From NCBI GenBank assembly GCA_019915135.1, contig JAHLMK010000003.1, positions 2,542,001 through 2,606,000 of the forward strand: a DNA stretch of 64,000 nucleotides. The letters run 5' to 3'. The position numbers and the translations under genes were made by a program. This DNA comes from Strobilurus pachycystidiatus (taxonomy: Eukaryota; Basidiomycota; Agaricomycetes; Agaricales; Physalacriaceae). The notes beneath the pieces are model-generated. The model made no database searches, was not told the origin of the DNA, and saw only the letters and a program-made list of their open reading frames with translations. The stretch's first letter is position 1. Each line of letters starts with the position of its first letter. Positions 9,218-39,875 of this stretch are shown piece by piece.

Positions 9218-10405
9218 TCATAACTTCTTAGCCAAGTCATTGACTACTTTCACAGCACCTTCCTTGATTCTTTCTAGGCGTTTGAAGAACTTCTTACCGA
9301 AGGCCTTCTTGTCTTTTCGCGAGAAGAAAGGAATCACTCTAAACTTCGCGACTTTACTGTCTCTTAAAACTGTTCCATCCAGTTCGCAGAGCACGTAGTT
9401 ACCACGGGTCGTTCGAGCTATGACAGCGTACGGTCCCTTGAGCCGTTCCTTGAACTTAGCGTTGAGTTCTTTCTCGATGCGAGTATTTCGAACGACTCGG
9501 AGCACCAGGTCGCCCGTCTCGAATACATGTTCTGGCATGGAATTGATATAATCTTCCTTGTACTCCTCCGCTGATCGTTTCTTCGCCACAGTGACTCTCT
9601 TTCGCATTTCTTTAACGTCTTCTTTATGCTTTATGAGCTGTTTAGCTCGATACGCGATGAGGTCACTATGTGACACGATCTTATCTGGGGTGTTGATCAA
9701 CCAAGTTACTTCCTCGATATCCAGCGGTAGAATCGGGTCGCACCCAGTTACCGCGTAGAGCGGTGAAGTTCCAATCGACCTTTTGACTGTTATCCTTTCC
9801 GCCCATAGCACTTCATGTAGGTACGCTGGCCAAGTTTCGGGGTCGCCTCTACATACTTTGAATAGTGATTGACGAATGTCCCAGTGGCCCCTTTCTACCT
9901 TCCCATTAGCCTGTTTGTTATATGGGGTGATCAGGATACCAATTACACAGTACTTTTCTTCGATGTGTCTCAACGCTTTCTTGATTGCTGGACCGTTGTC
10001 AGTAACTATTTCGTTCCAGCACCCCCACCGACACAAGATGTCCTCGAAGATCCATTCTCCGAGTGTTTCTGCCGTCTCGTCATCTTGCTTCTGGCGAGCC
10101 GGCGAGTCCACATCGTGCTACGGTTACTGCATTGTAGTTCTTGTACTTCGAATTCTTATCTTTGGCACCTGAGTTCGGCATTTTAAACGTGTCTATGTAC
10201 TCTCTTTCGAAGATCCCCGGCGTCGACGTGATGACCGGTTCTATGTGGATATTCTGTCGCTTCTGACAGAGTAGGCATGTGCGTACATACCACTTCACGT
10301 CTGCCTCAAGTCCTGGCCACCAAAAACGCTTACTGACCAGTCGTTGTACTGAGTACTGTCCTTTATGTCCACTCATACGTTCGTCCCTCCGGAGACGAAG
10401 GCTCT
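9218..10405 (-). pseudogene. Ty3/gypsy-type integrase fragment
   Basis: Two overlapping minus-strand frames encode consecutive parts of a retroelement integrase. The upstream part (10080-10405) carries the HHCC zinc-binding region (GHKGQYSVQRLVSKRFWWPG, then CLLCQK). The downstream part (9218-10111) carries the core with the second and third acidic residues of the D,D-E triad (TDNGPAIKK and NGKVERGH). It is followed by a long basic C-terminal region with a chromo/SH3-like stretch (GDLVLRVVRN, LKGPYAVIARTTRGNYVL). The frame changes by one base near 10085, after a GLAGSPEAR segment that should lead into KQDDETAETLGEW. Protease, reverse transcriptase and RNase H are missing upstream (the homology stops near 10405) and no LTRs are visible. 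This is a dead 3' fragment. Confidence 0.9.
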
Positions 10406-16324: not shown

Positions 16325-18933
16325 GTGACGATCGTGATCGTTCAAAAGAGCACACCCCTATTGATCCAGGATAAACAGGCAGTTGAAGCTTACACGCTAC
16401 CATACCTCACTGCCCTTCCCACTTTTCCACCTTCCGGCTCAGTGCAGCCTGTTCCAGATGGCGGCGCGAAAGTCACGACAACTCTGCCTAAGATCCCACC
16501 ACCCCGGAAACTGCAGTCGTCGGTTGACGATGACATCCCCCCTTCCTTCCTGTCCTCTCATGGCGGTCGTGACTCTTCCCGCGCTGAGCGCTGGGAACTG
16601 CTTATTGACTTTATTCAAGCCGCACAAAAGGGGACAGCTCTTTTTGGGATATGGTGCGAGAGGTTATTGATCCCAAGATGAGAGACGCGGAGATCTTGAT
16701 TGACGAAATGGCAAATGAGTTCGAGGCGCGCCTAAACAGCCCTGCGAGTGTTCCCGAGGAGTTCGACCTTGACGCACTAGCTCACGCCCTTCTGCAGTCC
16801 GAAGCGATCCCATTCGAGACAAGCGACACCTCGCCAGAGGGATTCTTCTCCGCTGACTGGACAGAGGTCGATATAGAGGAGGTGAAGGAGGAGATGCGGC
16901 GTGATTCATCGGGTGCAGCGGGATGGGACCGCACAACTTACGACGTGTTCCTGCGTATTCCCAAGGATCGACTCTGTCACTTGTTCAACAGGTGTCTCGC
17001 CTTACGAGGAGCCCCGCGAATGTGGCTTATAACCATCCTCATCGGCATTCTAAAAGCAGGGAAGGATCCAAAGCTGGCCGGGAGTTATCGTCTCATTGGG
17101 CTAGAGTCTTGTATTCTCAAGATGTTTACCCTTCTGATCGACAAACGGATACAGGCTTGGATGATTGCGAGGGGTATTATCCCTGACACCCAGAACGGCT
17201 TCCGCAAAGGGTTTGACGCGCTCAACAATCCGTGGATCCTACTATGCGCTATTCAGATGGCTGCCGCAGAGAAGAAGACACTCTATGTCGTCTTTCCCGA
17301 CCTCACAAACGCTTTTCCATGGACTAACCACGCGGTTCTGTGGTCTATGATGTATCAGCGAGGCGCTGGGGGACCGATATTTGACTGGATCAGGATGTTG
17401 TACCGTTGCATGACCTATGTGGTCCGCTTAGGCACAGAGTTCTCGAAGCCATTTCGGACGACCATCGGAATGCTTACAGGCGATACCTCTTCACCTAGCC
17501 TCTGGTCCTTTGTGTCATCGGATCTCACTATGACATCTCACCCCGAGGACACCATCATGGATGGACGGGCAGTGATCAACCACGTCTTGCATGCTGATGA
17601 CGGCGCGATGTGGTCGGGTCCTCGGGGCATTGTATCCCATCTCGAAGAGTACGCCGCTTATGCGAGCCGGAAGGGATTCATGGTGAACGTTCCAAAAACA
17701 AAGGTGCGATTGCGCGCTGGTGACCGTGTAAGGGATGCTTAACAGAGTTGCGATAGGCTATGGCTTTCGGTGCTTTACCTGACGTCCTACCAGTCTTCAC
17801 GCTCCAAGGGAAGGAGATCGCATGGACGGACGAACACAGATACCTGGGTGTCACCCTCTACTCACGGACCGGTGGCCTCTTCTCCAAGATGTACCTGTCA
17901 AAATCCATCACAGCACGAAAAACGGCAAACGTAACACGTTACCCTACGCCTCCAAAAGCACTTTGGCGACCTACCTCCAGCTCAAGGCCTTACGGTCTAC
18001 AAGGCCCGGGTCGCAGCGCACCTAACTTACGCGGCTGAGCTATGTGTAGACGTCAATGGACGCGGCCTGGCTCTCCTGGAAAGTGTCGAGAAGCACTTCT
18101 TACGTCGAATTCTTCACGTCCATGACCATTCGCGCGTTGCTACCTTGTACTCCGAGACTGGTATCATCCCACTGCGCTACAATCGTCTACTGCGCCCACT
18201 CAAGTTTCTGAGGAGGCTCCTACTCCTACCCGATGAACGACTAGTCAAACGGTGCTTTGCTGTGTACGTGACTCTCTGGAAGGCAGGTGCCGCAGGATGG
18301 TTAGGTGATCTTGGCAATGTTCTCGCGAGAGTCGGAGTGCAGGATCCCTCCAACTGGTTGAATGCCTTAACGAGCGTTCAGGGTGTCGACGCGCTGATGG
18401 CAGCGGTTCGTTTGGCGGCGGAGCATTGGGTCAGCAGTCAGATTGAAAGCCAGCGTTTGCCCTTGCTCGTGGAACGACGCCAGCGAGGGCGCGGGGGTCG
18501 ATGGTACGATGGGCCAGTTCTCCTTTGGAACTACTTGCTTGTGCGGGTGCCTGCTCATCGAGTGGCGCTCACGCGACTAGTAACGGGTTCTCATCTACTA
18601 GGAGTCGAAGCCGTTAAGTGGATTCCACGTCCTGCGGCATTCACGGGAGGAGTACCAAGACACTGGCGTCTTTGCCGCTTATGTGGAGACAGTATCGAAG
18701 ACGAGATTCATGTGATGCTAGCATGCTGCGATCCCGCACTTGTAGACATGAGAAGTCGACTGATAGTCGAGGTATGGAAGATGTACCCGGGCTTGAGGGG
18801 TAGGGCTAATACGCCGGAAAATTGGTGGCGACTGGTGCTCGAGCATGATGATCTGGTGCCCATAGTGGCTGAATATGTCTTTGCAGTGCTGCAGATCGTC
18901 CTCAGTGTACCAATGTATGTACCCGAGTGGTAG
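16325..18933 (+). pseudogene. Non-LTR retrotransposon ORF2 (reverse transcriptase)
   Basis: A LINE-type reverse transcriptase. The N-terminal linker is at 16325-16640. The palm and fingers are at 16651-17703: SGAAGWDRTTYDVF, GILKAGKDPKLAGSYRLIGL, NGFRKG, VFPDLTNAFP (holding the first catalytic Asp) and LHADDGAMW (catalytic DD, with His in place of the usual Tyr or Phe). The thumb follows at 17757-17940 (FGALPDVLPVFTLQGKEI). The C-terminal part, 17945-18933, has LYSETGIIPLRYNR and a zinc knuckle CRLCGDSIEDEIHVMLAC. A 53-bp intron-like insert lies at 17704-17756. One-base frameshifts near 16635 and 17942 kill the frame. No endonuclease domain is seen upstream, because the element is truncated near 16.3 kb next to the E(z) start. 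Confidence 0.93.
17704..17756 (+). other. Intron-like insertion inside the LINE reverse transcriptase
   Basis: The 53 bp begin GTGCGA, contain GCTTAAC (a CTNAY-type branch point) 16 bp before the end, and finish with GATAG. Removing them joins ..PKTK to AMAFGALPDV exactly in frame, which is the expected path of this protein family (KTKVMVFG-like). Left in, they bring an in-frame stop. Confidence 0.75.
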
Positions 18934-24423: not shown

Positions 24424-24976
24424 ACTTTGGAGGGCATTTCAAAAGGAGGCATTCAGAGCCCAATATAGACGACTCGCCCTCACTTTCACACGGTTTCCCC
24501 TTTCGCTTTATACCACAAAGTCAGATAGAGCACCCTCATTTTTAGCACCTCTCGTCCCTCGGGGAACGTTTTGTCTAGAATGGCATGCGTCGAGACTTCC
24601 GTATTTCCGTCCCTTCTTCTTTTGTTCGTCTGGATTCAGTCGCCAGGTTCGTGTTGACCCTGCCCTCGTAAATCTCTTATCTTTCACAACTCGCCGTCTT
24701 ACAGTCGTCTTTGCCCGGTGTTGGATCGAACACAACCCTGTAAACAACACACTTCAGGTGGACTTTGACACTTACTCCAACTTCAACTTTCAAGACTGTT
24801 TCAACCGAGGACAGAAAGTTTCTGTTCTTGTTCCGAGTCGTTACATCGAAAGCTGGTGCTTACTTGACTATCAGAACGCTGTTGACTGCAAAGAATGCTG
24901 TCCGCTACTTCCCCTTTTCTTCGCGCTAGACTTGGACAGCCGGCGCTATGTCCATGACTATCATCATTGCCCGTGA
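24424..24976 (+). CDS. Open frame, unknown protein
   Basis: About 184 codons are open on the plus strand, beginning just after a TGA near 24424 and ending at 24976. The content looks protein-like: RAFQKEAFRAQYRRLALTF, LVPRGTFCLEWHASRLPYF, RCWIEHNPVNNTLQVDFDTY and VLVPSRYIESWCLLDYQNAV. There is no ATG near the 5' end (the first is 24758), so it is either an exon of a larger gene or a relic. A W..F......YRRL pattern slightly recalls fungal F-box-family helices, but I cannot assign it. Confidence 0.35.
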
Positions 24977-24983
24977 ATGAACG

Positions 24984-25594
24984 ATGGGCGCTGCCTACAA
25001 CGGCTCAGTGGAGACAGGATCGCCCTCAAACAGCTCTGCGCGGACGCCGAGGACGACGCGCGTGAGGCTACATGACAACCAACGCGTCAAACGCGAAAAC
25101 CTGGATACTAGGTGCGTGATATCCTGCTCTAGTGTCTATGTACACAGACCCACTTTTACCTGCAGGCCTCCTTCCACGTCGGCTCCCGCGGACTTTTGGC
25201 TCGGTGCGTACACCTGTCCGTTTCGGACCCTTTGACTGACGCCGTGTTCCCTACTACTGTAGCCGTTGTTGCACTGTATCCGGATCTCATTCGCTTCACC
25301 CCCTGCCATCATCTGTACGTGTCCTTTTCTCTCGTTTCCATCCGTACATGCTCTCATTTGTCGACAGAACCCTTTGAATCATCCACAGCAAACGACACGA
25401 CGTTTTATTCTCCGGTACGCAAGCTCACGCTGATCCGGACATGTCAACCAATTAGTCTTATTCAGATGTCTTCCACTTTCATCCGACATCGGGACCACCG
25501 ACTTGGTTTCTCCTCGCTGGACCACGACAGAATGGAGTCATCGTTTGGTACCAGTACAGGTAGCTACGATGTCACTAGACACCAATCACATTGA
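24984..25594 (+). CDS. Possible multi-exon gene of unknown function
   Basis: ATG 24984 opens MGAAYNGSVETGSPSNSS. Several convincing intron-like intervals follow: gtgcgt..ctgcag (25111-25164), gtgcgt..ctgtag (25203-25261), gtacgt..gacag (25317-25369) and gtacgc..attcag (25417-25465). The series of good donors and acceptors suggests a real gene, but I could not find a phase solution that avoids stops in the short exons between them. Confidence 0.25.
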
Positions 25595-25866
25595 CTCTCA
25601 TTGATCTGTATAGCCCTGCATGGACCAAATGAACCGAGTCGATACATGTCGACCGATGTCCACGAGGGTCTACTGAAGTGAATGTGAGGTGCAAGACCCG
25701 CCTACCGATATGTAATCAGCTGTCATACGAAATGCAATGCGTGAGTACGATATATATCCTGTTTCAGAGACGCGCAGTGCATGTAACGCGGCAGCCTACA
25801 TAACTAACGGTAATGACGACCGGAACGTTCTGCGTCGCACCTTGAACCTACTTGTGTGTTTTCAGA

Positions 25867-26864
25867 TCAATTATCAACTAAGGGCAAATACGAAGCAGGA
25901 AGCCGTACCTTGAGAGCCGCACCATCTTCGCTCTCGAGGGCAGGCGGCGGATCAACTTCAGTGAACAGCCCATTGCAAACGACCCCCCCCGTCTGGATTG
26001 ACAAAAGCAAAGGGGATACCAGTGGACCAAAGGCTATGATCGACCTCGTGCGTATATCCATGAATGATGAGATCACGTCACACCCACTTCAACAACGCAA
26101 GCACGAGGCGACAGACTGCAGAGTTGCGATTGAGCGTGGTGGAAGCAATTATAAGGGTCAAAAACTCACCAGGGATGGACGATGGCGGTGCTGCTGCTCG
26201 TATCATAGCTAGTGACGATTCGATGGAACTCGGGCTTCCCATCGAAGATAGGGAGAGACTGCGACAGAATTGCGTCTGAGTTCGTGGCGCGCTCGCCCCG
26301 TATAATATCCTTCTCCATGACTGTGTCCTATCTCGCTAGGACTGTGAGACTGGGCAAAGAAACTCCCGTAGGACTCTTATCAGTGTCGTCTTCCCTGAGA
26401 CTGCGAGGTGGGTACCATTCGGTAATCTGTGTTTCAATCTTGACGAGGGCTTGTGCTGCCTTAGAAGAGCGCTTGAGGCTCGCAGTCGCGACGTTTGATC
26501 CTGCTACCAGCCACACAGGCACAATCACAATAGGGAAAACATGAAGAGATTATACACACCTTTGCAGTTGGAGGCCGGGCTGCTACTCGGAGTGTCATAC
26601 CATGCTTCTCAATGTCATCGTCATCACTGGTGAGTGTGAGCATGCCACAATTAATCTGGAAGATGGTGTTTAGGGTCAACTAACAAGACTCTTGCACTTT
26701 AGTATCGCTGGGAATAGAGACCGGTTGCTTTCCTTCTGTGGTGTTCCCGATGCTCGTGAGACTTCGTTATCACTACGGGGATAGTAAGGAGGTACTCGCG
26801 TAGATGACAAGATAGATATACGGCATAACAATGATTCCGGAATCCGGTACCGTTGAGGTGCCAT
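25867..26864 (-). CDS. Possible multi-exon gene of unknown function
   Basis: Minus-strand pieces at 26680-26864 (MAPQRYRIPESLLCRISIL), 26570-26660 (GMLTLTSDDDDIEKHG), 26330-26525 (TASLKRSSKAAQALVKIETQ) and 25867-26076 have coding-like composition. Intervals such as gtgtgt..tggtag (about 26505-26562) could be introns. The frame used after that intron is ambiguous. The whole may be a decayed gene. Confidence 0.25.
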
Positions 26865-27051
26865 CCAAAGATTCGGGTGTATCTTGCAGTGAGTTACTGT
26901 CTAAGGTCATTGGAGCGTCTGAAGATTCGGCCTGTGTCGCATGGGAAGATTCAAACGATTCCGGAAGAGTGAAAGGTCTTGCTTCGTTGAGACGCGTATC
27001 TGTCTAGAGTCGTTTGGCCTCAGGGATAGCGGAAGGTGAGCAAGATTGCTT

Positions 27052-27745
27052 TCAAATGGATTTTGGTTTAGACGCAGGCTTGCGGCTATCCCAGGTAGAG
27101 TAAACCTTGGTCGTAAAGGTCGTAAAGGCATGAAGCTTCCAGCCGCCTGCGCATAGCTGGAATGGTAGAAACTTGCCAAGCATCTTTGCGTTATACCACA
27201 CCAACGCATCCTTGTCCCAATGCATCCTCGTCCAATGCATCCTCATCCACGTGTTTCCAGGAGTCTGGGGCAAGTTCTGCCTTTTTGAGCGAACGCCAGC
27301 ATCGACGAGCCTGTTCTCGCATTTCATGTAGAGCGGCGTTGGAAATGAGGGCACCAATATCATTCTCGAGGTACATAAAGCTTGCCACAGTGATTTCATT
27401 GGTCGGAACAACTGTGTCAGTGCGCTTTCGTCCAAGCCGGGTAACGGTAGCATTGTAGGGGGTGTCGCTGCGCGTTTTGCTAGATGATCGTTGTAACTTT
27501 GCTGGGTCCAGAAGCGAACATGCGGGTGATTGTCATGAGTCAAATGTTCGAGTGTAGCAGGCGCAGAGGGAAGCGAGCAGGAAGATGAAGACACACTATT
27601 GGAGGTGGCTTTAGAGACCTCATCAAGTCGAGTGGTGATGGTACTGAATGCAGGTTGTGTGGTATCTCGAGAAGCGAGTATGGAGACTGTCTCAATCAAA
27701 TGTTTGGAGAACCACTTGTACTCGGAGGAGCCTATAAATCGAGAT
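27052..27745 (-). pseudogene. Decayed member of a basidiomycete-type dispersed gene family
   Basis: The minus strand encodes, in two alternating frames, a plausible protein. The first part reads SEYKWFSKHLIETVSILASR, then VRFWTQQSYNDHLAKRA. The second, in another frame from about 27455, reads FMYLENDIGALISNAALHEM, then RRCWRSLKKAELAPDSWKHV. The third, back in the first frame, reads KDALVWYNAKMLGKFLPFQL, then KVYSTWDSRKP. The order (W..Y.D.., an acidic-rich LED segment, A..W..L....APDSW, then F...F.LC...WK.......Y..W) matches a family that I recall being repeated in Agaricomycete genomes with unknown function. The second frame change falls in a slipped GAGGATGCATTGG tandem repeat near 27196-27250. 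Confidence 0.5.
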
Positions 27746-28019
27746 TGGATAACTGAGTTGCCACCTGAGTTTGCTGAGTCCGGATTGACAGCTTCAGGGA
27801 GAGAAATCGAAGAGCGAGCAGTCCAGAGGACAGAGAAAAGTGACAGAGTAGCGTATTGAGAAAGATTGTAATGGGTTTATGCGGCAAAAGGGGACGGGAG
27901 AAAGCATCAGGAGTCAGGACAATGGTCCAAGAACGAAAATGATACGTCATTTGTCACGAGTTCGTGACCCTGCGATAGTCCTGCGATGGTGCTGCAGCTG
28001 CGACATGAGAGTCTCAATG

Positions 28020-28124
28020 AGAGGCCTCAGGTGTAAGGTGTCAGGTGTCAAGATCAAGAGACAGTTATACAGGAAACCTTCAACTATGCTACGCGTCTCA
28101 CTGCTCAAACTCAAAATCCACAAC
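28020..28124 (+). repeat. Inverted repeat, left copy
   Basis: AGAGGCCTCAGGTGTAAGGT, then two GTGTCA units, AGATCAAGAGACAGTTATAC, AGGAAACCTTCAACTATGC, TACGCGTCTCACTGCTCAAA and CTCAAAATCCACAAC. This matches the reverse complement of 34784-34910 with few changes. It has fewer GGTGTCA units and lacks the duplicated AGGAAACCTGC of the right copy. Confidence 0.9.
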
Positions 28125-28527
28125 TGCTGCAACGTGACTGTCTCAGTGTCTGCCACTGTCTCAGTGTCTGGTCCTCCCAGGGACCCAGCCCTTCTCGAAT
28201 CTCAGCCTCTCGCGCCGGGGCCCGGCAGTGGGCACCGAGTGAACATCACATGGAAGAAGAATTTCGCAGGACGCAGTATGATCAGTCACGCGTCACGGCT
28301 CGGTCATCTTTGTGACTTGACGCGCTGTGTACCGCGCGTCGTTGATGTTTGGCTCTGAGATATAAGGTTGGTTTACAATGTTTTGCCCTCTTCTTTGCTC
28401 ACCACCACCTGCAGTCACCCCTATGTTGGGGCTGAGTGGCGTTCAGTCCTATACTGAGCCTCCACTGCTGGTCGGTCCTCTCCTCTTCTCGATCTGGTTG
28501 AGCCCATCGCACTCCTAATACCACGCA

Positions 28528-29836
28528 GTGGCGCACATTGCGCCCATCATTCGGTTAATTGTGCCTTGTTGGATGTGTCAGTCTCCGGTGTCAATCTCGC
28601 CGCCCGACTTGGTTTCCAACGACCGCGTCTTGACCTCCGAACCTCCGAGCGTCATTGCTTTCTCTTTGACGCTACCCGAACACATCAGGAGGAACGGCAT
28701 TGGTATCGCTCACGAATTCTACCCCACCCCACCCGACCAGCTCTCTCGCGCCACGTCCTCCTCCCATGTATCCCAAGAAAGCCAGATTGCTCAGCCTCTC
28801 CAGAAACCCCAAAGCGGTATCGCGTCCCTCATGATATTCGGGAACGGTCCCGATGCGGCGCGGCTAGTCTGAACGGACTTGTAAGCTACGGTTTCGTCAG
28901 ATCGAGGATTTCAAACTTACCAAGTCCCTTTGCAGATACCGCTCGGAGCCAACTACCGCTACTGCCCAAATCATCTGAACTCGACACCTTCTTTCTGCAA
29001 GTCTGGTGAGTTCACGCCCGGTTCACATCCGAGTCGAATGCTCACCTCTACGTGCCTCAGCGCACCGAACGAACTTAGGTCAGAATGACGAACAGGATAA
29101 TCCAGCACCTGGCCCATTGTCACGGCGGCCTGCATCAACCGTGCCTTTCTCTCGTCGAGCGTCTTTGGTGACGAGAAAGACGTGGACCTCATTCCTCCAG
29201 ACCCAACTCTTTGACCCATCCCGGTCAGAGATTGGCTGTCAGTCGCAGACTTGGTCATCTGGCTTGAATACGCCTATACACTCACATCACGTCTGAACGA
29301 TTTCACCAATGTCCTCGACCAACACGTCGATTCCATGATGACTTCGTCTTATTCGCAGAACGCAGGCGTCATTGACGGTATGGGAATGATTGGGACAGTG
29401 CTTGGTTTACATGGACTGGTTCTCGGCCCATCCTCGGCTCGACTCGAGTGCATCGTCCTCCTACCTCGACAACTCCTTTCCTGCCTCGCCGTTCTCATCG
29501 ACCAGCTCACACCATGGCGTCGTCGACCGCTACGATCTGGTCAACATAATAAGAACATTCCCGCGGGATTTTCACATTGAAGTGGGCTCGTCAGGTCTGA
29601 GCGTTGAGATCTACCCACCACGTCGCGAGTATCATTGCGACTATGCAGGGAAGGCTCCTTTGGCGGCGAAGGCCTCGACTATCTCGAATAGGTGCTCTCC
29701 TCCTCGACAACTTTGTTTCCTTCAGCTCTGCCCGCAACCATGCTTCGCCCGCCTACAGACAATCTTTGATCGAGATGCGGGTCGACAGCCAGACAACTTG
29801 AAAGACACACCTCGGCGAGGCGAATCGGGCCAATGA
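28528..29836 (+). other. Weak overlapping frames inside the KDZ unit
   Basis: Plus-strand frames at 28528-28872 (IAFSLTLPEHIRRNGIGIAH), 28566-29009, 29251-29580 (VIWLEYAYTLTSRLNDFTNV) and 29390-29836 could be exons. A minus-strand frame at 28971-29258 also looks acceptable. I could not join them into one model or recognise a domain. If the KDZ unit is real, this 1.3 kb is either cargo or a relic. Confidence 0.2.
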
Positions 29837-30108
29837 GTGCAAATTGGCGGAGATTATGATGTTCAAGTTGAGCTTGAGATCCGCATCGAGGGTCCTCGTC
29901 AGTGCCATCCTATGCAACCTGGTGAAGACTTTGGGCATCATGGTCGACTATCGAGTATTCATCACAAATCTACTCCATTTCCAATACAGTGTGCGAGAAA
30001 GTCAGTAGAAACCTTTTGGGTCACGTTAGACATGCTCTATAATCAAACAGACAATCAAGTACACAGTATTGAAAATACTACTGCTACATTGATCCTCATG
30101 CCCGGGCC

Positions 30109-33100
30109 TCACCCTCCTATCAGAGTTTCATCCTCCCCGTCGCTATCACCCCCTTCTTCAATCTCCAAGAGTTCCACCTCTTCTGCTGAAGGAGCCGCCG
30201 ATGGTGATGGTGATGCCCACTGCGCGCCAAATGCCGCCAATAGATTTTCATGGACCGCGACCTGATGCTCCGCATATGCCCCAATCCCCTCTTTGATCTC
30301 TTCAGATAGGGTTGGGTCGGGATTTGACTTTCGTCCTTTCCAAGCTTCTGCCCGCGTCTTCATAGTCACCGTCACCCGTCGCATTTCTTCCTTCAACAAT
30401 TTTACTTCCTCAGACCATCTAAGGGCACGCGCCCTACTCTTGAGCCATTCGACTCGAAGTCCTGTTCGTATTTCAATGGAAACTCATCCAGGCAGCAAGC
30501 AACACGTACCTTCCAATACTCTACGATCCGGTGTGCCATCCTTGCCCGGCATTGTTTCAGTTGTCCAGACCCATGATGGCTGCACGCGACCTTGACCCAA
30601 CGGCATCAACACGTCGACATCGAGATTCGCCCCCGCCATGTTCTGAACATCCCCATCGCGAAGAGGGCGAAGCTCCACGCTCCAAGGACCATCGGGATGC
30701 AGGGCGTTTAGTGCATGGCGACATCTCCGGTACTTATCGACAGCAAACCTCGATCTCTCTTTCAATGTGTTGATCGTACTGCGCGCACGCGTCACTGCGC
30801 CTTGGCCTTCCGTCTGGAAATCACGAAAGACGAAAAGTGCGCGCAGGCACCGCTCTGTTGTCCGGATGACATGGAGAGCGTCGTGGCATTGAGCCATTCG
30901 CAGTTCTTCTTCTTTGGCAGCAACACCATCCAAACATGCCGTGGTACGGGCCTCTGCCTCGAAATCGGAGGCCAACCACAGCTTTTGATCCTCGACCTCC
31001 ACGGCTGCGGATCTGGCTACCGAAGCAGCGGAAACCTTGGTAGGTGCACCTGGAATATACACCGCCTGAACTTGACGGAACAGCCTGATTCGCCTAGCAA
31101 TATTTGAGCGTTTCTTCTGGATGTCGCTTGCTTGTGCCGTTGTCAAAACACCCTCGCCGTCGGTCTGCAGACGTAACTTCTGCCTAACATCGATCATGAA
31201 AAGTCTGTGCAAAAGCAATTGCAAGGGCGCACTTACTGAGACTCTTCAATTCCTAGAGCCATCGCCAAGCAACCGGTGACCGAGGTGTCATTGAGGCAGA
31301 GGGCCCCTGCTACCAGAGCCTGCCGCTCCTCCTCGCGCAGGCGATAACGCACTTGAGCTTCCGTCTCGTCTGCGCTGCAAGTCAACCAAAGCCCCCAAGC
31401 AAAGGCAATGCCAATGAAGACATACGGTTGATGTCGGGAACGTAAGGATTGGGCTGGGACCTATCCGCTTCCCAAGTCTCAACCTTGTCCATCCATTCTT
31501 GTGTCACAGTTGCTTCTAGATGCTCCGTAAATTCCTTGTGAAGGTCTCCTTGCTTCGTCATCTGAGTCAGTGCCGTCTCCAAACGACGATGTAGTGTATC
31601 GCCTAGACATGATGACCGATACAGTTGAGCCGCGAGAGTTCTGCACACGAACGAAGAAGGATCTCCTACCCAAAGTCACCAGTTTTGTCCAATTGAGAAA
31701 TCCAAAGTGGTCGTCCAAGGTATCCGCCCTTGAGCCCGGTCCCATTTCCTTTACGCTCGCGGCGCATCCCCTGATGAATGCCCAGAGCCGCTCGATTGTC
31801 TCACCATCCGTTCTCCCCACACCAGGCTGGATCCCCATGGCATACTGGCATTGGCAACTCATGACATGGCCAGGGCAGTGGCCTTTCGGTATCGCACTGA
31901 AGATAGCTATGTCCTCAGGGAGCTGAAGGTCTTCGGGGAGATGCTCCATGCGAACGAGTAGAGAACGGATCCACTGACAGACAATGTCGTAAGTAAAACA
32001 AACCTCTTTCAGATCGTGGCGCTTCCGCAGGCTGGACAGGGAAATGTAGTCAGAATTACAGTAGCTGGCATCATAGAATCAGTCGAGTCGGCACGCGATC
32101 ATTCAGGTATGCCAACCGTTCTCCTTTCTGGAGGTCGCCTACCCCCTCGGGCGCCACCATCTCATGACGAGCGCAAACTGACGCTAAAATACCTGTTGCG
32201 CGCATTCCAGAATGACTTTTGCTATCTGCATGAGCCAAGGCCTTGAAACCCGAACAGGTGCTAATCTAGACAAATTTCTCGTCAGCACCGTCGTTAGCAC
32301 CATGGCCCAGACTTACATCTGCTTGAGAGGCATTTTTCAAGATATGCTCTCGATATCCATCATCTTCGTTGATCATGTAACCGCCGCCGGGATGAAGGGA
32401 TGGATCCACGGATTGATTTGAGCGTATAAGACTCGTTATCCGGAAGCAAGCATCCAGGCTTTGAAACTGTCGATAGAGGAATCTGGTTTTATACGTCAGC
32501 GTGTTACGCCTCGACAATAAGCAAAAAGACAAACTGATCTGGTTGACTCTGCCAATTGTCTGGTAAATTCACAGCAGGCATAGGGCACGCAGGACAAACA
32601 ATCGCCAGCTCCCCACGCTCTACTTTTGACGCCCCATCTACCTGACAGCCCTTACCAGCACGTAAGAGCATCATGAGGTGCCTGTATTGTCGCACCACGC
32701 GCAGGAACGGCTGATACCGTCTCTGTTGTAGTGTGGTGAGGAAACTTCATTGATTGGCTACTGGTTGAGAGATCACACACCTTTGGGACATCCAAGCCCA
32801 ATGCGTCTGTTAGATACACAAGTGATTTGTAGAAGTTATAAGCCGAGACCTTTCCAGTTAATGTCGCGGAGTGGAAGAGTTCTAGCGCATCTAAGGATAC
32901 ACATGTAGCGGGGCGATGGACTGTCGCAGGGTACCAGCGAAACCGTAAGAGCTGCTTCCATTTAGCAACGTTGGAATCCTCGTCTAGGCAGTTGCAGTAG
33001 CTGACTGCAACTTCGTGAATTCCGTTCGTGTGAATGATCACCAGGCTGCAACTAGCCTTCTCCCGCAAGAGACATTTTGTTCCGTCTTCGTGACCCAGTT

Positions 33101-33873
33101 TAACACAAAGACCCATCCTGATGAGCGGCGTCTTGACAAAACGTTTCCCGTTCCAATACTGTTACCCTCATGATTCAGTTACTAGGTCGTTGAACACTGT
33201 AAGGCTGGGTACTCACTTGGATGAAGTGCAGTGGCATAGTGCGATGACGGTTTACACAACACCTTTTACACTCCAGACGCCAAGGATTACACAGAGCGCA
33301 GCGATAGGATGGCTTTTGAATGGTTTGACAGCTAGGACAAAGCCGCTTATTTGCACGGCCGCGGCTTTTTGACCTGATCAGTTCGTACAAAAATTCTTGA
33401 ATGTAACTCGGCTGCCTGTCCACTCCACGCCACACATCCATGGCACGTCGCTGCAAATAAGGAAGACGGGGGAACATCAGGTCCCCGTTCTCTACAGTCT
33501 AGAAGCCGCCACCCACCGTCTCCGTTTTAGCCGACGCCGCGAACGGCATGACTTTCTTGTCGCTGTCATGCGTGTGAGTTGCTGCGGACGTCGTCGCCAA
33601 AGGAACCTCCTCGTAATGCATTTCGAAGTCGCCATCTACGCCGTTGTCCCCTACATCAACATTGGTGTCCTCTGCGTCGTCAATTTCCATTGGCATTGGA
33701 GAACTCGCCTTCGGCGCCTGAGAAAGGGGAAGCAATGGTCCATGGAGAGCTCCTAGTACTCCGTTGCGACCACGTCGAAAGATTTGCGTTGGAATGCTCT
33801 CGGGGTGTAAAGGCCGAAGAAATTTTCCTGTCCGACCGCGTGCCAGTCTCTTCTTTAGTGAGCGAGTGTTCAT
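30109..33873 (-). CDS. KDZ-family transposase with CxC2-type cysteine cluster
   Basis: Transposase of the Kyakuja-Dileera-Zisupton superfamily, nuclear. ATG 33873 starts exon 1 (MNTRSLKKRLARGRTGKF). The first intron (about 33443-33511) leads to DVWRGVDRQPSYIQEFLYEL and the CxC2 cluster CPSCQ..YRCALC..LECKRC..HR..PLH. Next come LVIIHTNGIHEVAVSYCNC, LLRFRWYPATVHRPATC, HSATLTGKVSAYNFYKSLVY and VCPACPMP. The core follows: CSGFKALAHADSKSHSGMRA (32.2 kb), TGILASVCARHE, LQKGER, YDIVCQWIRSLLVRMEHLP, then PGVGRTDGETIERLWAFI and KEMGPGSRADTLDDHFGFLN (31.7 kb). The C-terminus holds VRYRLREEERQALVAG, a helical part and REEMRR-type repeats. Junction phases checked agree and no stop or shift was found, so it looks intact. 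It is divergent from the 34115 gene. Confidence 0.93.
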
Positions 33874-34114
33874 GGCGTGGTGGGTGGTGGATGGGGGGTG
33901 TAAGAGTGGCACTGAAGAGAACGCCAGACGGAGAATGACTGACAAATAAGGCTTAGACCTGATTTACGTTCTTTGGCTGCCTTCGTATCCGCCACCTGTC
34001 CGCCACGCATCCTGGGGATATCCGAGAACCTTGATTGAGACACAAGCATAAAAGTGCAACACTTCCCCATACATACATACCCTTATACCATCTACCTTAG
34101 TACCTACACCATCA
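33874..34114. promoter_or_regulatory. Shared spacer between two divergent genes
   Basis: The 241 bp lie between the KDZ start codon and the start of the small plus-strand gene. The right half is pyrimidine/adenine-rich with a CATACATACATA run (34068-34080) and no coding potential. By position it should hold both promoters; no specific factor site is claimed. Confidence 0.45.
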
Positions 34115-34810
34115 ATGTCTCAATCTCGATCAAGTCGTCAGCTGAATTGCCTAGACTCCCCCGAGATAAAGCTCGCACCCAACGAATGCCTTGTAGACTG
34201 GATTCTTCCCGACGGGTCCAAACGGACGGTCATCATGTACAAGGCGTCGATGCAGGTGGAGGCCGAGCGGCGGCAGGCGATCCTAGACGTGCCGTGAGTA
34301 CACTCCTGTCTTCCGTGGCTCTTTGTGATAGCCGCTCACTTTATTCCATGAAAAACAGGGAGGATAGCCCACCCACCGACGATCAGAAGTTCTTGTCGTT
34401 TTTCACCACTCGTACATATTTTATCTGGGAACGCTTTACCCCGGAACAGGGCCAATTCATCACTTCTCGCTTCGAGTCCTTTGAAGAGGCGGTGCGCCAC
34501 AACAACGCAAAGGGGTGGTTAGGAGCATTTTACCAAGAGTGGTTTGCGAGATTCACCAAGTACGTGGAAGACGACTGGGGCTTTGCAGAGCAGCAGAGGC
34601 ACTGTAAAGTGGTAAGCAGGTGCCACTTTCTAAATGATTCTTCCGGTTTAAGTAGCTCTCTAGCGACTCCTAAAATTTCTCATCAATACATTGGTCAATC
34701 ATTGGAACACGACGGGTCGCCCGAAGGGGAAGAACGGGCGAATGGACGTTATGATGGTTCGGGTGGACATGCTACACGAATTGGTTGTGGATTTCGAGTT
34801 TGAGCAGTGA
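34115..34810 (+). CDS. Intact three-exon 192-aa protein, divergent partner of the KDZ transposase
   Basis: Exons are 34115-34293, 34359-34611 and 34664-34810. Their lengths add to a multiple of three, both introns are GT..AG (gtgagt..aacag, gtaagc..tctag), and no stop intervenes. Exon 1 reads NECLVDWILPDGSKRTVIMY. Exon 2 is rich in aromatic residues (SFFTTRTYFIWERFTPEQGQ, then WLGAFYQEWFARFTKYVEDD). Exon 3 is basic and then ends in DMLHELVVDFEFEQ. I do not recognise the family. The last nine codons and the stop lie inside the right inverted repeat, and the left repeat contains the same terminal reading (VVDFEFEQ, stop) on its minus strand. A role in transposition or its regulation is inference from position only. 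Confidence 0.7.
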
Positions 34811-34910
34811 GACGCGTAGCATAGTTGAAGGTTTCCTGCAGGTTTCCTGTATAACTGTCTCTTGATCTTGACTGACACCTGACACCTGACACCTGACACC
34901 TGAGGCCTCT
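34784..34910 (-). repeat. Inverted repeat, right copy
   Basis: Reverse complement of 28020-28124. It contains four tandem GACACCT units (about 34874-34901) and a duplicated CAGGTTTCCT relative to the left copy. Confidence 0.9.
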
Positions 34911-34917
34911 GACACCA

Positions 34918-35295
34918 CGCTGGCCCAAAGATATTACCTAGAGTAAAAGAAAAGGACAAATGTTAGGCAAAAGCAAGAATTTGTCCCGGTATTTGTTCGA
35001 AGAAAAAGACATTCTATCAATCCTGCAAAATAATAGTCCAAAGCATAGCTTTTGCCAGAGAAAATGATCAAAAATTATACAAGAAAACGACTAAATTTAG
35101 ACAGCAACAAAGACAATGAATTACCTAGGAGAAATAGGTTCAAAATTCCGACACAAAGAAAGACAATTGCCGGGCACAAAGACATGATTTCTCCTCGGCA
35201 AAACACTATCTTTTACCCGGCACAAAGGCCGAGAGAAAGATAATCAATTGCGTCAGAGAAACTCTATCTTTTGCCGAGGTAAAAGAAAACGCCCG
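34918..35295. repeat. AT-rich tract with repeated purine motifs
   Basis: The tract contrasts with its GC-rich surroundings. GAGTAAAAGAAAA near its start is echoed by GAGGTAAAAGAAAA at its end. CTATCTTTT occurs twice (about 35207 and 35264), and CGGGCACAAAG / CCGGCACAAAG occur at about 35172 and 35217. It has no coding frame of note. It may be a small inserted element directly beside the KDZ unit; no clear terminal inverted repeat was found. Confidence 0.45.
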
Positions 35296-36535
35296 TTGAG
35301 GGGCAGATGAGTGCCCGAAGACCGGGTTCTCGGAAGTCCCTGCTCGGCCATTCGGCGGCTTGTGCTCGCCAGATGAGTGGGATCTCATAGCCGGATATCG
35401 GCAGACTAGACCGATGCCGCGACATACGCGCCTGTCCATCGTTCAAATGATCCAGGTCTCAATATTGAGCTTCTAATAGTGATATCTGACACGGCCTGCC
35501 TGAATGACAATCCGAAATTCACGCCTTTTGACGATGTATTTCCGTTGGACGAGACTGCAGCTGAGAATATCATAAACCTAGAATACACAAACGGCTATAG
35601 ATAGACACCGCGAGCGCTGAGAAGATACATACTGGATACATATGTACATTAAATACTATCGCCTGATGGCTTCCTGTGCCTGTCCGATCAGCCTGAATGA
35701 AATTCCGGCTAATCCACTTGACCCAACCGATCTATCCATCCCAATTAAGCACTGAACGCCTCCTTCGAACGACGCCACCCTCCACGACGTGCATCAGTGC
35801 ATCTTCTGGCTGGGCATACAATATGTTCGGCCTTCTCACCGTTCGCGCTCACCACTGCCGTAGGCCGATCATTGCACAGCCGCGTTCCAAACTAAGCTGA
35901 GCCTACCATTGCGCACCCAAACTCCAGCATCGCCCGCCGCCACCGTCGACAGCAGCCTCAAATGCCTCGTCAACAAGTCGAGCTTTTTCGCCCGATCAGA
36001 GGTCCACCTATTCTTACCCGCCGGCGTCGCAACGGCGCTCCGCTCGCCCACCGCGTCCTCAATGATTGCAAGCGCCATCGTCGCGCATTTGGGATGGACG
36101 CCAAGATCTTCGCGTTGGCGTGCGTGTATTCGATAGTGGCATTGATCTGTGCCAGTCTACTGATCATTATCCAGCCGACGCCTTACCATAAACCGACCAT
36201 TGCGCATCCCCGCGGCCATTTGACCGTCCGCGTATACAACGCCCAATCTTGGTGTATCGGGGCCGTTCATTGGTACCAACTGCTGGAATCCGACGTGTTC
36301 GTCCACGACGAAGAGCGACCCGGCTCTGTTGCATCCATGATCCACGTTCAGAGCACCGTGCCACGAGCCCAACGTCGTTTCAAGCACTGGTTCCGCCGCT
36401 CCGACCACATCCAAGTCAGTCAAACTCCAGTTTTCTCACTCACAGATCCTTCCAATCGAACTCAACTAGGTTCCCGTTCTTCCATCCGTCTGAGACACGA
36501 TTGTCGCCCGGTTTTGATTCTACACCCGTACCGTA
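35296..36535. other. No firmly supported gene
   Basis: One plus-strand frame (35962-36564) has a membrane-like segment (IFALACVYSIVALICASLLI) followed by a soluble stretch (VYNAQSWCIGAVHWYQLLES). The opposite strand is also open through much of the same interval, so the frame alone is weak evidence. It would run into the 75-bp tandem repeat. Confidence 0.25.
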
Positions 36536-36759
36536 CTATTCTTGTAAATACCACTTTACTTTAACCGTCCTCTTGCGAAAGCTCTAGTTCTTGTATCACC
36601 ATAGCTCACACTATTCTTGTAAATACCACTTTACTTTAACCGTCCTCTTGCGAAAGCTCTAGTTCTTGTATCACCATAGCTCACACTATTCTTGTAAATA
36701 CCACTTTACTTTAACCGTCCTCTTGCGAAAGCTCTAGTTCTTGTATCACCGTAGCTCAC
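36536..36759. repeat. 75-bp tandem repeat, three copies
   Basis: Units start at 36536, 36611 and 36686, each beginning CTATTCTTGTAAATACCAC and ending near ATAGCTCACA. They are nearly identical; the last has CACCGTAGC where the others have CACCATAGC. Near-identity implies a recent expansion. Confidence 0.95.
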
Positions 36760-36784
36760 TACATATCCTGCCACATGACTGTAC

Positions 36785-37351
36785 CTATTCCCCCAACGAG
36801 ACTTTCATAACAGATCGGATTTGGAGAAGAGATAGGAATTGTACACCTTCGCAGGCCAATCCAGGGACAAGAGATATCGCAAGCAGACCCGCAGTGAGAG
36901 GCGCGATGACCCTCTTCGTCGCCCTCAGAGAATCAGGGTCCTTCCATTGCGCATAATCTGTTTCTGCACTCAACAGCATTCCACTTCCTCGGAGACCAAG
37001 CCAAGATTGTACATGCGAGGGTGCGGATGGGAAAATAAGCAAGAGTAAGACCCAAAGCAAGAGTGGAGGCGCGGGGAGGAGAATTGCGTTTCGAAACCCG
37101 AGGCCGCTATTGGGAAGCATATCGACGTCGAGAACCTCGCTCGCTGCGGAGTTTGTTGAGCGGTTCACGGAAGAACTGCCACGCCTAGCAGACGCTTGAG
37201 CAGGGGAGCGCGATTGACGGAGGAGCCAGGAGATGACCGCAAGGTCAAAAGCGTTGTCGCTAACACATATGCACCTTGTTCTTGCGCACGCATGGGTGGC
37301 ACCCGCGTCGTCGATCGAGCCTCTCCAATGTCGAGCCTGGTTTCCCGCCAA
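36785..37351 (-). CDS. Possible small membrane protein
   Basis: A 188-codon minus-strand frame. It has a serine-rich middle (RRGSSSVNRSTNSAASE) and a strongly hydrophobic segment (ILLPAPPLLLWVLLLLIF, about residues 90-107) that would span a membrane. No family is recognised, there is no splice evidence, and plus-strand frames overlap. It may be a chance frame. Confidence 0.25.
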   Translation of the reverse strand: MAGNQARHWRGSIDDAGATHACARTRCICVSDNAFDLAVISWLLRQSRSPAQASARRGSSSVNRSTNSAASEVLDVDMLPNSGLGFRNAILLPAPPLLLWVLLLLIFPSAPSHVQSWLGLRGSGMLLSAETDYAQWKDPDSLRATKRVIAPLTAGLLAISLVPGLACEGVQFLSLLQIRSVMKVSLGE

Positions 37352-37384
37352 TTCTCATCTAGACGACAGCTCAGCGATTACTCT

Positions 37385-39875
37385 ACATCGAGCAGGGGAA
37401 TGAACAAACTTCGCGATGGCGATGACGGGCATCGTACTGGTCGGCGAATGCCTCGTCTACGTCTGTCACGGCTTGCTCTATAGCGGCCTTCTCAATAGCA
37501 GCGCATGCAAATTGTCCTGCACCAATATGAGAGTGACCTGATCCTGTTGAACAACCTCCGTGAACCAGCCTCGACCAAATACGTCCTAAGATGGTTGGCC
37601 AAATTGCTCTTGAGGGGCTCCTTGCAAGTAACGAGGGCAAGACTTCCAACCAACTTCTGCGCCATCAGGTGTGAGGCCTTCCGGATTTTATCCTCGTTGG
37701 GCTCCGTAGCAAAGTCTTTGACGATCAACTCCCGAGTCGAGATGCCGGCGATTGTGACAGACTTTTCGACGACTGGTAGAACGATCTTGAAGAAAAGGGA
37801 GTCAATGCATGGACAAGAGATCGGGCAAGTTTCCTCACCTCTCGAACCGAGCGACCAACAGCAAGTTGGACAGCCCGCTTGAACGCTGGGTTCAAGTTCA
37901 GGGACTCAACTGAGAATCAATAGAATCAACTGAATGTGGCCACCCAGTGGACGCTGCGTTTCCGCTGGGCTCGCAGGACCGAGAGGCAAAACCTGCGCAT
38001 CACCGCCAAGGTGCTGTGGCGTCGGATCGTAGTCCCCGCCCATAGGTAACGAATTGATATCAGACACATACTCCGGCAAAGGCGGTCCCGCGAGACTCTC
38101 GGAAAGGAGTCGGTTACGCAGAATGTCGTCGGGTCCACGTTGTTCAGGTCAATTTCAACAAAGGTGCATAGCAGCTCAATCTCGAATTTCGGGTTCAAAC
38201 GCAGCTCGGCGAAGTAGTAGAACTCGGCCGGAAGACTGACCACGGCCATCAGCCACGGATTGGGACTTTTGAATACCCTAGATTTGGAACAGCCCTCCAG
38301 CGTTTTGCACACGAAGGGCAAGGCAACATGCAACCGGCCGCTGTGATACCCTTCGATAACAAGGTCCTTGAACGACAGGTTCTGATGGGTTGGTCGCGAG
38401 CCAGGGTTATAGATCACAGCCAGAAGCCGACGTTTTTCAGAGCATTCCTCTCCGCCCCGGATTGCATGGACGGCTCGGAGTTCAACGATGTTCATATACT
38501 CACGAAGGTCTCGTATAGAATAAATTTAGAGAGAACCTTGAACCCAAGGCATCGAGGAAGCGGAGGTAGAGAAAGTGGTTGTTGGGCTCTGAGCTGACGC
38601 GTTGATCAACAAGGTAGTTCGCAAACCACCTGGAGTGGTCTTCAACGAAGAGGCCTTTCATCTCGCTGAGTTTGAAGTCGAAGTTACTGCGTGCCAAATC
38701 GTTGACAATGAAAACAATCTTGTCGGAGAGTTCCTCGGGCGGTTCGTCGATAAGATCCGTGAGAGGGTCGGGTTGGATGGATGTGAAGGCGGGAGCGGAG
38801 TCGGAGGGAGCGCCAATCGCAAGCGTCCTGACATCGCCATTTGCGTACCCTTCAACAGACGACGTTGCCAGATGGCGCTGGATACTCGTTACGAGTTCTG
38901 GCTTGGCCTCGGCCAGTGTTGAAATTTCGACCCATTTCTCGCACAGTGGACGCCATTCTGCCAGTCGATACTCGAAGCGACTGGAAGACTGAAGCCCAAA
39001 CTTGAAAAGATGGTGTCTGGAGGACAGTGGAGGGCATCTGAAACGTAGCGCATGGCGATGCCAAGAGGGATGGAGTCGATGAGCTGGTGCTGGATGAGCG
39101 ATCCGAAGAGGTATCCGGTCATGGCTAGCTCCCGGGCGGACTAATAGAATTGGAAGAACTTGTACTCGTCAAAGAGGAAATGGAGCATGCACGAGAAGAC
39201 TTTGTAGTCGCGAGGGTTCGAAGAGTCCTTGTATCGCTGCAGCTTGGAGATCACCTCGTCGATGGTAATGTTCTCGTCGTACATTTGCTTGTAGATGCCG
39301 TCTACCTCCGCCTCAACCTCTAGAGGGTAATTGACGACGGTGGTACCAGGTCCCACGTCTGATCCGGGGATGAGACTCATGAGGCGAGGATGGATTTGAA
39401 GACAAAAGTTTCGGACTTCCATGCTGCGCTGCGCGTCTTCCTTCTCCATCAAATTGGCACTAAGTAAGATGGATGAGAGTGTGCGTGCTCGACAGAAGAG
39501 AGCTGCTTACCTGTTCCGAAGAACATGAGTATGATACTATACGCGTGGTCTTCTCGCTTTGTATCTTGTCTTCCAAGAACTCCACAACTGCTCGAAGAAA
39601 TTCGGCGCCGTGAGTCCCAGATCTAAGAAGAAACACGAAAACTCACCATCGACAAGGAAAAGTAAAGTATCCAGAAGGGGAAAGACAACAGCATCAAGAT
39701 TGTTGCCCGATGCATGGAACTGCAATATGACATGAGTATCGGTGCAAATCCGCAAGATCCAACAACATACCGAAGTGAGCCGGAACAGAGCCTGACATAA
39801 CTCGCGGCGTAGTTCCTTCACAGAATGTGCTTCATTTGGCAAAGAGACCGCGGGTGACTTCAAAGGCTCCGTGGG
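37385..39875 (-). pseudogene. NOT1: Internal fragment of NOT1, CCR4-NOT scaffold
   Basis: NOT1 is the large scaffold of the CCR4-NOT deadenylase. The minus strand carries, in order, the HEAT region that binds tristetraprolin in animals (DEDAQ-type start, then VDGIYKQMYDENITIDEVIS, CMLHFLFDEYKFFQ, IPLGIAMRYVSDALHCPPDT). Next is the MIF4G domain that docks CAF1 (FIVNDLARSNFDFKLSEMKG, WFANYLVDQRVSSEPNNHFL, KSPNPWLMAVVSLPAE). Last is the DUF3819 / CNOT9-binding region (NPAFKRAVQLAV, SVTIAGISTRELIVKDFATE, GSLALVTCKEPLKSNLANHL, IEKAAIEQAVTDVDEAFADQ). The N-terminal part and the C-terminal NOT box are absent. One-base deletions occur near 39010 and 37575, with another shift near 37510. An intron (37790-37840, gtgagg..cttcaag) is kept, so the copy arose from DNA rather than mRNA. 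A 39860-40066 frame may be its first piece. Confidence 0.93.

What the first reader, a model, noticed from the sequence alone, without database searches (positions are those of the whole stretch)
28020..34910. Two intact divergent genes, one a KDZ transposase, enclosed by inverted repeats
Seen: 105-127 bp inverted repeats bracket 6.9 kb holding a KDZ transposase with no visible lesion and a three-exon 192-aa gene that also splices cleanly, while most other elements in the window are broken. The two genes share a 241-bp spacer. Known: KDZ elements of fungi are often recognised from the transposase alone. Inference: this is a recently active two-gene KDZ transposon, and the 192-aa protein is a possible accessory or regulatory factor not described to my knowledge.
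Basis: partly seen in the sequence, partly recalled or inferred. Interest (0 to 1): 0.85.

Follow-up and report, generated by a model that had tools for sequence, protein, structure and literature searches.

The report
Truncated KDZ transposon with partner gene
A fungal genome holds a cut-off, probably dead copy of a jumping gene whose flanking repeats are probably not its true ends, while its small neighbour gene proves to be a steady partner of that jumping-gene lineage and matches no family in the catalogue checked.

Summary
The DNA features are real: 105/127-bp inverted repeats, a lesion-free KDZ transposase model (1074 aa; KDZ and CxC2 domains) and a 192-aa three-exon gene 241 bp away, head to head. 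"Recently active transposon bounded by these repeats" is not supported. One of three genomic copies of the repeat found (C3:2656714) lies in a 99% duplicate of the left half with no KDZ gene. Between left arm and transposase lies another repeat (B, 28257-29947) that three other copies carry past the point where it is cut here, 29947|29948. Seven related elements have a different left end, CACCC.ATATTTC or a variant; in the four measured it lies 338-379 bp beyond the transposase, with TTTGSCAAA-like sites inside it. The window has neither. No close copy of the unit was found. Pfam has no match; Hymenopellis radicata has a homologue. Best reading: remnant of a Kyakuja-like, multi-gene KDZ lineage with an apparently undescribed helical partner protein. 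How the left arm arose is unsolved.

The parts
28020..28124 (-). left inverted-repeat arm: inverted copy of the 3' end of the 192-aa gene and its downstream sequence; probably not the element's left terminus
   Evidence: also at C3:2656714-2656810 with the same flanks but no KDZ gene
27990..27996 (+). TGCTGCA, left copy of a 7-bp direct repeat that flanks 27997-28124 (second copy 28125-28131); possible target duplication of the arm
   Evidence: suggestive only
28257..29947 (+). repeat B, a separate repeat of about 2.04 kb cut short at 29947
   Evidence: C3:2743026 (99.8%) and C3:2655802 (99.3%) and a distant copy at C4 continue past this point with shared sequence
29947..29948 (.). junction of cut repeat B with the KDZ 3' flank, 161 bp past the transposase stop; the left terminus seen in relatives would lie beyond it
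30109..33873 (-). KDZ transposase gene, 11-exon model, 1074 aa, KDZ core plus CxC2
33874..34114 (.). 241-bp divergent spacer (294 bp in L055 and 278 bp in L056, to putative start codons)
34115..34810 (+). partner gene, 192 aa, exons 34115-34293, 34359-34611, 34664-34810
34784..34910 (+). right inverted-repeat arm: last 27 nt of the partner gene (stop included) plus 100 bp with a TGACACC minisatellite
34909..38145 (+). repeat C, a separate repeat abutting the right arm (first base 34909-34911 uncertain; right end not determined)
   Evidence: similarity starts at 34909 or 34910 in 4 of 5 copies read, 12 bases later in the fifth

Best explanation
29948-34910 is a single, cut remnant of a KDZ element of a Kyakuja-like lineage. 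It keeps the transposase and its divergent partner gene but has lost the left terminus with its subterminal sites and, probably, the right part. The 105/127-bp inverted repeats are not terminal inverted repeats: the right arm is the 3' end of the partner gene plus downstream sequence up to where repeat C begins, and the left arm is a stray inverted copy of it on the far side of repeat B. Shown: the clade-limited pairing of the two genes, the different left terminus of seven relatives, the cut in B, a copy of the left arm without KDZ. Inferred: in whole elements the two genes are expressed together from the shared spacer; the transposase, perhaps with the partner, binds the TTTGSCAAA sites inside the ends; the partner is a small helical cofactor or regulator of transposition.
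For: (1) Repeat search: 3 places found in 52 Mb, one in a 99.3% duplicate of window 27116-29947 with none of 113 KDZ matches near it. (2) B continues past 29947 in 3 of 3 other copies read there, and the tail strings searched are absent from the window. (3) Left terminus CACCCHATATTTC: 5 exact hits in the genome, each at the left end of a clade KDZ, backward control 2. The 27-base pattern with up to 3 mismatches: 9 hits, 6 at clade KDZ genes, controls 0. L076 holds a 6-mismatch variant 373 bp past its KDZ stop. In the window no hit to the long pattern, best 7 mismatches; the short one has one 2-mismatch hit at 9917, as chance predicts. (4) TTTGSCAAA-like sites (up to 1 mismatch) near positions 19, 53 and 98 in 4 termini examined (L069 lacks the middle one), 0 in 29948-34910. 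(5) No close copy of the unit, while C9 and C7 copies of a relative are 99.9% identical. (6) Partner gene at 10 of 10 clade KDZ genes, like exons and spacer in the two relatives examined, homologue in Hymenopellis radicata, E 1.8e-37.
Against: The arms lie where terminal repeats would, inverted, at near-perfect identity; this is not explained. Other KDZ elements do have 139-241-bp terminal repeats (Cryptococcus, PMC12810828, passages), and a Marasmius oreades paper says that a terminal inverted repeat motif of KDZ and Plavaka elements was characterised (PMC8290104, passages; figure not seen). GAGGCCTC at both arm ends (28021-28028, 34902-34909) could be an 8-bp target duplication. The KDZ-free copy is related by duplication to the left half here, so it could have lost the gene; an ORF3-like stretch (36-42% identity) lies about 4.3 kb left of it. 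The test that the left arm sits in the upstream region of another repeat family was not significant (z 0.9, 2.2, 1.3). C28:25747, a clade member, shows no left terminus in the 700 bp fetched, and one 1-mismatch hit, C28:8792, lies 17 kb from it in the orientation a right-hand inverted repeat would have. C1:2118340 had no pattern hit and its flank was not read. 3 of 10 KDZ plus partner pairs, the window included, have no detectable ORF3, so its absence does not prove a cut right end. No right terminus was reached.
Confidence: 0.78

Rival explanations
1. One reading: a two-gene KDZ transposon, 28020-34910, with 105-127-bp terminal inverted repeats and perhaps an 8-bp target duplication GAGGCCTC, later invaded by repeat B, part of which was deleted.
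For: Inverted arms bracket both genes; Cryptococcus KDZ1-3 have 241/139/169-bp terminal repeats with 4-8-bp duplications; palindromic GAGGCCTC at both ends.
Against: Seven of nine clade members read have a different left terminus; the window is one of the two without. One of three arm copies has no KDZ. The arm overlaps coding sequence of the partner gene. The B junction needs an extra deletion.
Confidence: 0.15
2. The 192-aa gene is a host gene caught beside KDZ by chance or hitch-hiking, not a working part of the element.
For: No Pfam match; 7 of 17 loci of the gene have no head-to-head KDZ among the matches listed.
Against: All 10 closest KDZ genes carry it head to head, on seven contigs; exon pattern and spacer agree where examined; two 99.9% identical element copies carry it.
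Confidence: 0.07

Closest known systems
Kyakuja elements of the KDZ superfamily (Kojima 2025, PMC12730594: abstract, section 3.2.1 and passages seen)
   Same: KDZ transposase; relatives here begin with CA and no inverted copy of that end was seen beside them; large multi-gene elements
   Different: the TET/JBP gene reported there is not established here (13 sub-threshold matches, one at C26:273882 near a clade member); the text I saw does not mention such a partner; 7-bp target duplication not tested; the window copy lacks the terminus
Cryptococcus KDZ1-KDZ3 (PMC12810828, passages seen)
   Same: KDZ transposase in a basidiomycete; the arms here are close in length to the KDZ2 terminal repeats
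   Different: those have 139-241-bp terminal repeats, 4-8-bp duplications and a CxC1 domain; this gene has CxC2 and its relatives another left end
Two-gene DNA transposons with a helper protein, such as Nuwa Harbinger with its Myb/SANT protein (named in a passage of PMC12730594)
   Same: small second protein beside the transposase
   Different: no Pfam domain in the partner; helical model of a relative without a clear structural match

Membership tests
KDZ transposase (Pfam PF18758) | full KDZ domain | tested here: met
   187.3 bits against cut-off 26.6, positions 1-217 of 217
KDZ transposase (Pfam PF18758) | CxC cysteine cluster ahead of the core | tested here: met
   CxC2 127.8 bits against 27
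KDZ transposase (Pfam PF18758) | catalytic acidic residues intact | not tested
   candidate residues were only read by eye against a motif recalled from memory
Complete TIR-bounded KDZ transposon | terminal inverted repeats shared with its relatives | tested here: not met
   arms found at 3 places only, one without KDZ; seven relatives have another left end
Complete TIR-bounded KDZ transposon | target-site duplication outside the repeats | tested here: inconclusive
   GAGGCCTC lies within the arm homology and is palindromic
Kyakuja-type element | 5'-CA terminus | tested here: not met
   seen in 7 relatives, absent from the window copy, which is cut
Kyakuja-type element | no terminal inverted repeat, in the relatives | tested here: inconclusive
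   no exact hit in right-end orientation, one 1-mismatch hit 17 kb from a member (C28:8792); right ends not reached
Kyakuja-type element | 7-bp target duplication and TG 3' terminus | not tested
   right termini lie beyond the sequence that could be fetched

The most novel reading that the evidence does not exclude
The 192-aa family is a dedicated second subunit of a KDZ transposition machine: a small helical protein, encoded head to head with the transposase in every close member of one lineage, that recognises the fixed subterminal TTTGSCAAA sites or loads the transposase on them.
Probability: 0.25. Interest if true: 0.65.

Novelty: new variant of a known kind. Interest (0 to 1): 0.42.

Why it matters
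A clade-specific partner gene, a defined left end and fixed subterminal sites give a testable picture of how one KDZ lineage is built. The window copy is also a warning that inverted repeats around a transposase need not be its ends.

Full report
Observation. The inverted repeats are as described: 28020-28124 and 34784-34910, main gap-free blocks 97-98% complementary, far above chance (E 4e-32). Between them lie a minus-strand KDZ transposase, modelled with 10 short introns from 33873 to 30109 (1074 aa; KDZ 4e-55 over its full length, CxC2 2e-37), and a plus-strand three-exon gene of 192 aa, 34115-34810. The spacer is 241 bp. The stop codon of the 192-aa gene lies inside the right arm, so the arms share 27 nt of coding sequence.

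The arms are probably not the ends. A genome search with the right arm finds three places: the two arms here and C3:2656714-2656810 (the tool warns that its DNA search can miss common words). The third lies in a 99.3% duplicate of window 27116-29947, and none of the 113 KDZ matches is near it. The stretch 28257-29947 is a separate repeat, B: it is present at C3:2743026 (99.8%) and C3:2655802 (99.3%), and a more distant copy of its end at C4:60053-60420. In these three the sequence runs on past 29947 with shared sequence; in the window it is cut there and the tail was not found in the window. On the right, repeat C begins at 34909 or 34910 here and in four of five other copies read. So the KDZ unit is bordered by a cut repeat on the left and by the start of another repeat on the right. 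The left arm may be a small insertion of its own: a 7-bp direct repeat, TGCTGCA, stands at 27990-27996 and 28125-28131 and encloses 27997-28124. That is suggestive only, and a test for an interrupted upstream region of the neighbouring repeat family was not significant. An ORF3-like stretch about 4.3 kb left of the KDZ-free arm copy shows that other relics of KDZ-type elements lie in that area.

What whole relatives look like. Two copies at C9 and C7 are 99.94% identical over an 8,570-bp block and 99.90% over a further 2,093 bp, and their homology begins at CACCCCATATTTC. The same end, CACCC(A/C/T)ATATTTC, has five exact hits in the 52-Mb genome, all at left ends of relatives, with two hits for the backward control. 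A longer pattern with up to three mismatches gives nine hits, six at KDZ genes of this lineage, with no control hits; of the other three, C28:8792 (one mismatch) lies 17 kb from the member C28:25747 in the orientation of a right-hand inverted repeat, and C3:2432730 and C5:1016490 lie away from the ten members. L076 holds a more divergent form (6 mismatches) beside C3:2111461. In total 7 of 9 members read have the end; the two without are the window copy and C28:25747 (700 bp fetched). C1:2118340 had no pattern hit and was not read. In four relatives measured the end lies 338, 344, 373 and 379 bp beyond the transposase stop; in the window only 161 bp remain before the cut. In those four termini, TTTGSCAAA-like sites with at most one mismatch stand near positions 19, 53 and 98 (L069 lacks the middle one; 0 of 500 shuffles reach the count for each; 0, 2 and 0 such sites in the rest of L055, L056 and L069); the window unit has none. 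Kojima 2025 (PMC12730594, section 3.2.1) reports that Kyakuja elements have CA..TG ends, 7-bp target duplications and no terminal inverted repeats, which fits these relatives. Against this, Cryptococcus KDZ elements have 139-241-bp terminal repeats (PMC12810828, passages), and a Marasmius oreades paper says that a terminal inverted repeat motif of KDZ and Plavaka elements was characterised (PMC8290104, passages).

The partner gene. Searching the genome with the L056 form of the 192-aa protein gives 38 matches at 17 loci; the window's own form gives 30 matches at the same 17 loci. Searching with one transposase exon gives 113 matches. The ten best (63% identity or more, the window's included) are exactly the ten with the partner gene about 2 kb away, head to head; by reading the lists, the other 103 have none in that arrangement, although two (C2:1422071, C1:2112010) lie within 4 kb of a partner gene in another orientation. 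Seven partner loci have no head-to-head KDZ and may be relics; three of these have ORF3 beside them. Exon pattern and spacer (241, 294, 278 bp) agree in the window, L055 and L056. A homologue of 157 aa, a hypothetical protein, occurs in Hymenopellis radicata (E 1.8e-37); its neighbours are unknown. Pfam and PDB sequences give nothing usable. A model of a relative (145 aa of continuous DNA, in-frame intron included) is all helical with moderate confidence and no clear structural match.

A third gene. Right of the partner, 7 of the 10 pairs carry a convergent open frame of about 400-450 aa without Pfam match in the two examples scanned, here called ORF3. The window, C28:23k and C1:2116k do not. 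One relative may also have a TET/JBP-like match (C26:273882, below the curated cut-off).

How it most likely works. In whole elements of this lineage the transposase and the partner are probably co-expressed from the shared spacer; the transposase, alone or with the partner, probably engages the subterminal sites. This is inference. The window copy lacks the left end and its sites and is unlikely to move; with no close copy found in the genome there is no sign of recent activity.

Novelty. The listings of five paper searches gave no description of a partner gene for KDZ transposases; only passages or single sections of three papers were read. Iyer et al. 2014, the founding paper (recalled), is not held, and supplementary tables could not be read, so prior mention cannot be excluded.

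Noticed in passing
L056 6608-7795 (-), L055 7419-8000 (-), L071; C26:271108, C3:2130419, C3:2107186, C4:2966931, C9:325227, C7:1425019, C7:1370567: ORF3, a convergent open frame of about 400-450 aa with no Pfam match in the two scanned, sits right of the partner gene in 7 of 10 KDZ pairs; one metagenome homologue (P0001, 48%).
   Followed up: partly
L055 6556-6948 (+): Short open frame between the partner gene and ORF3 with a weak SAM-domain resemblance (E 0.05, below cut-off).
   Followed up: partly
first 110 bp inside L055:1329, L056:1285, L069:1170, L076:492 (-): TTTGSCAAA-like sites at nearly fixed positions just inside the left end of related KDZ elements, candidate binding sites of the transposition machinery.
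   Followed up: yes
C9:318170 rightwards and C7:1433224 leftwards: Two nearly identical (99.9%) KDZ element copies of over 10 kb, a sign of recent movement by a relative of the window's element.
   Followed up: partly
window 36535-36759: Three tandem copies of a 75-bp unit in repeat C; in another copy of C (L036) the three align to one stretch, so it may hold a single unit.
   Followed up: no
window 16651-17742 (+): Open frame with a reverse transcriptase domain (RVT_1, 7e-13).
   Followed up: no
window 24895-28256 and C3:2654656-2658628: The left flank is a mosaic of repeats duplicated at 94-99% some 87 kb away on the same contig, with one segment inverted.
   Followed up: partly
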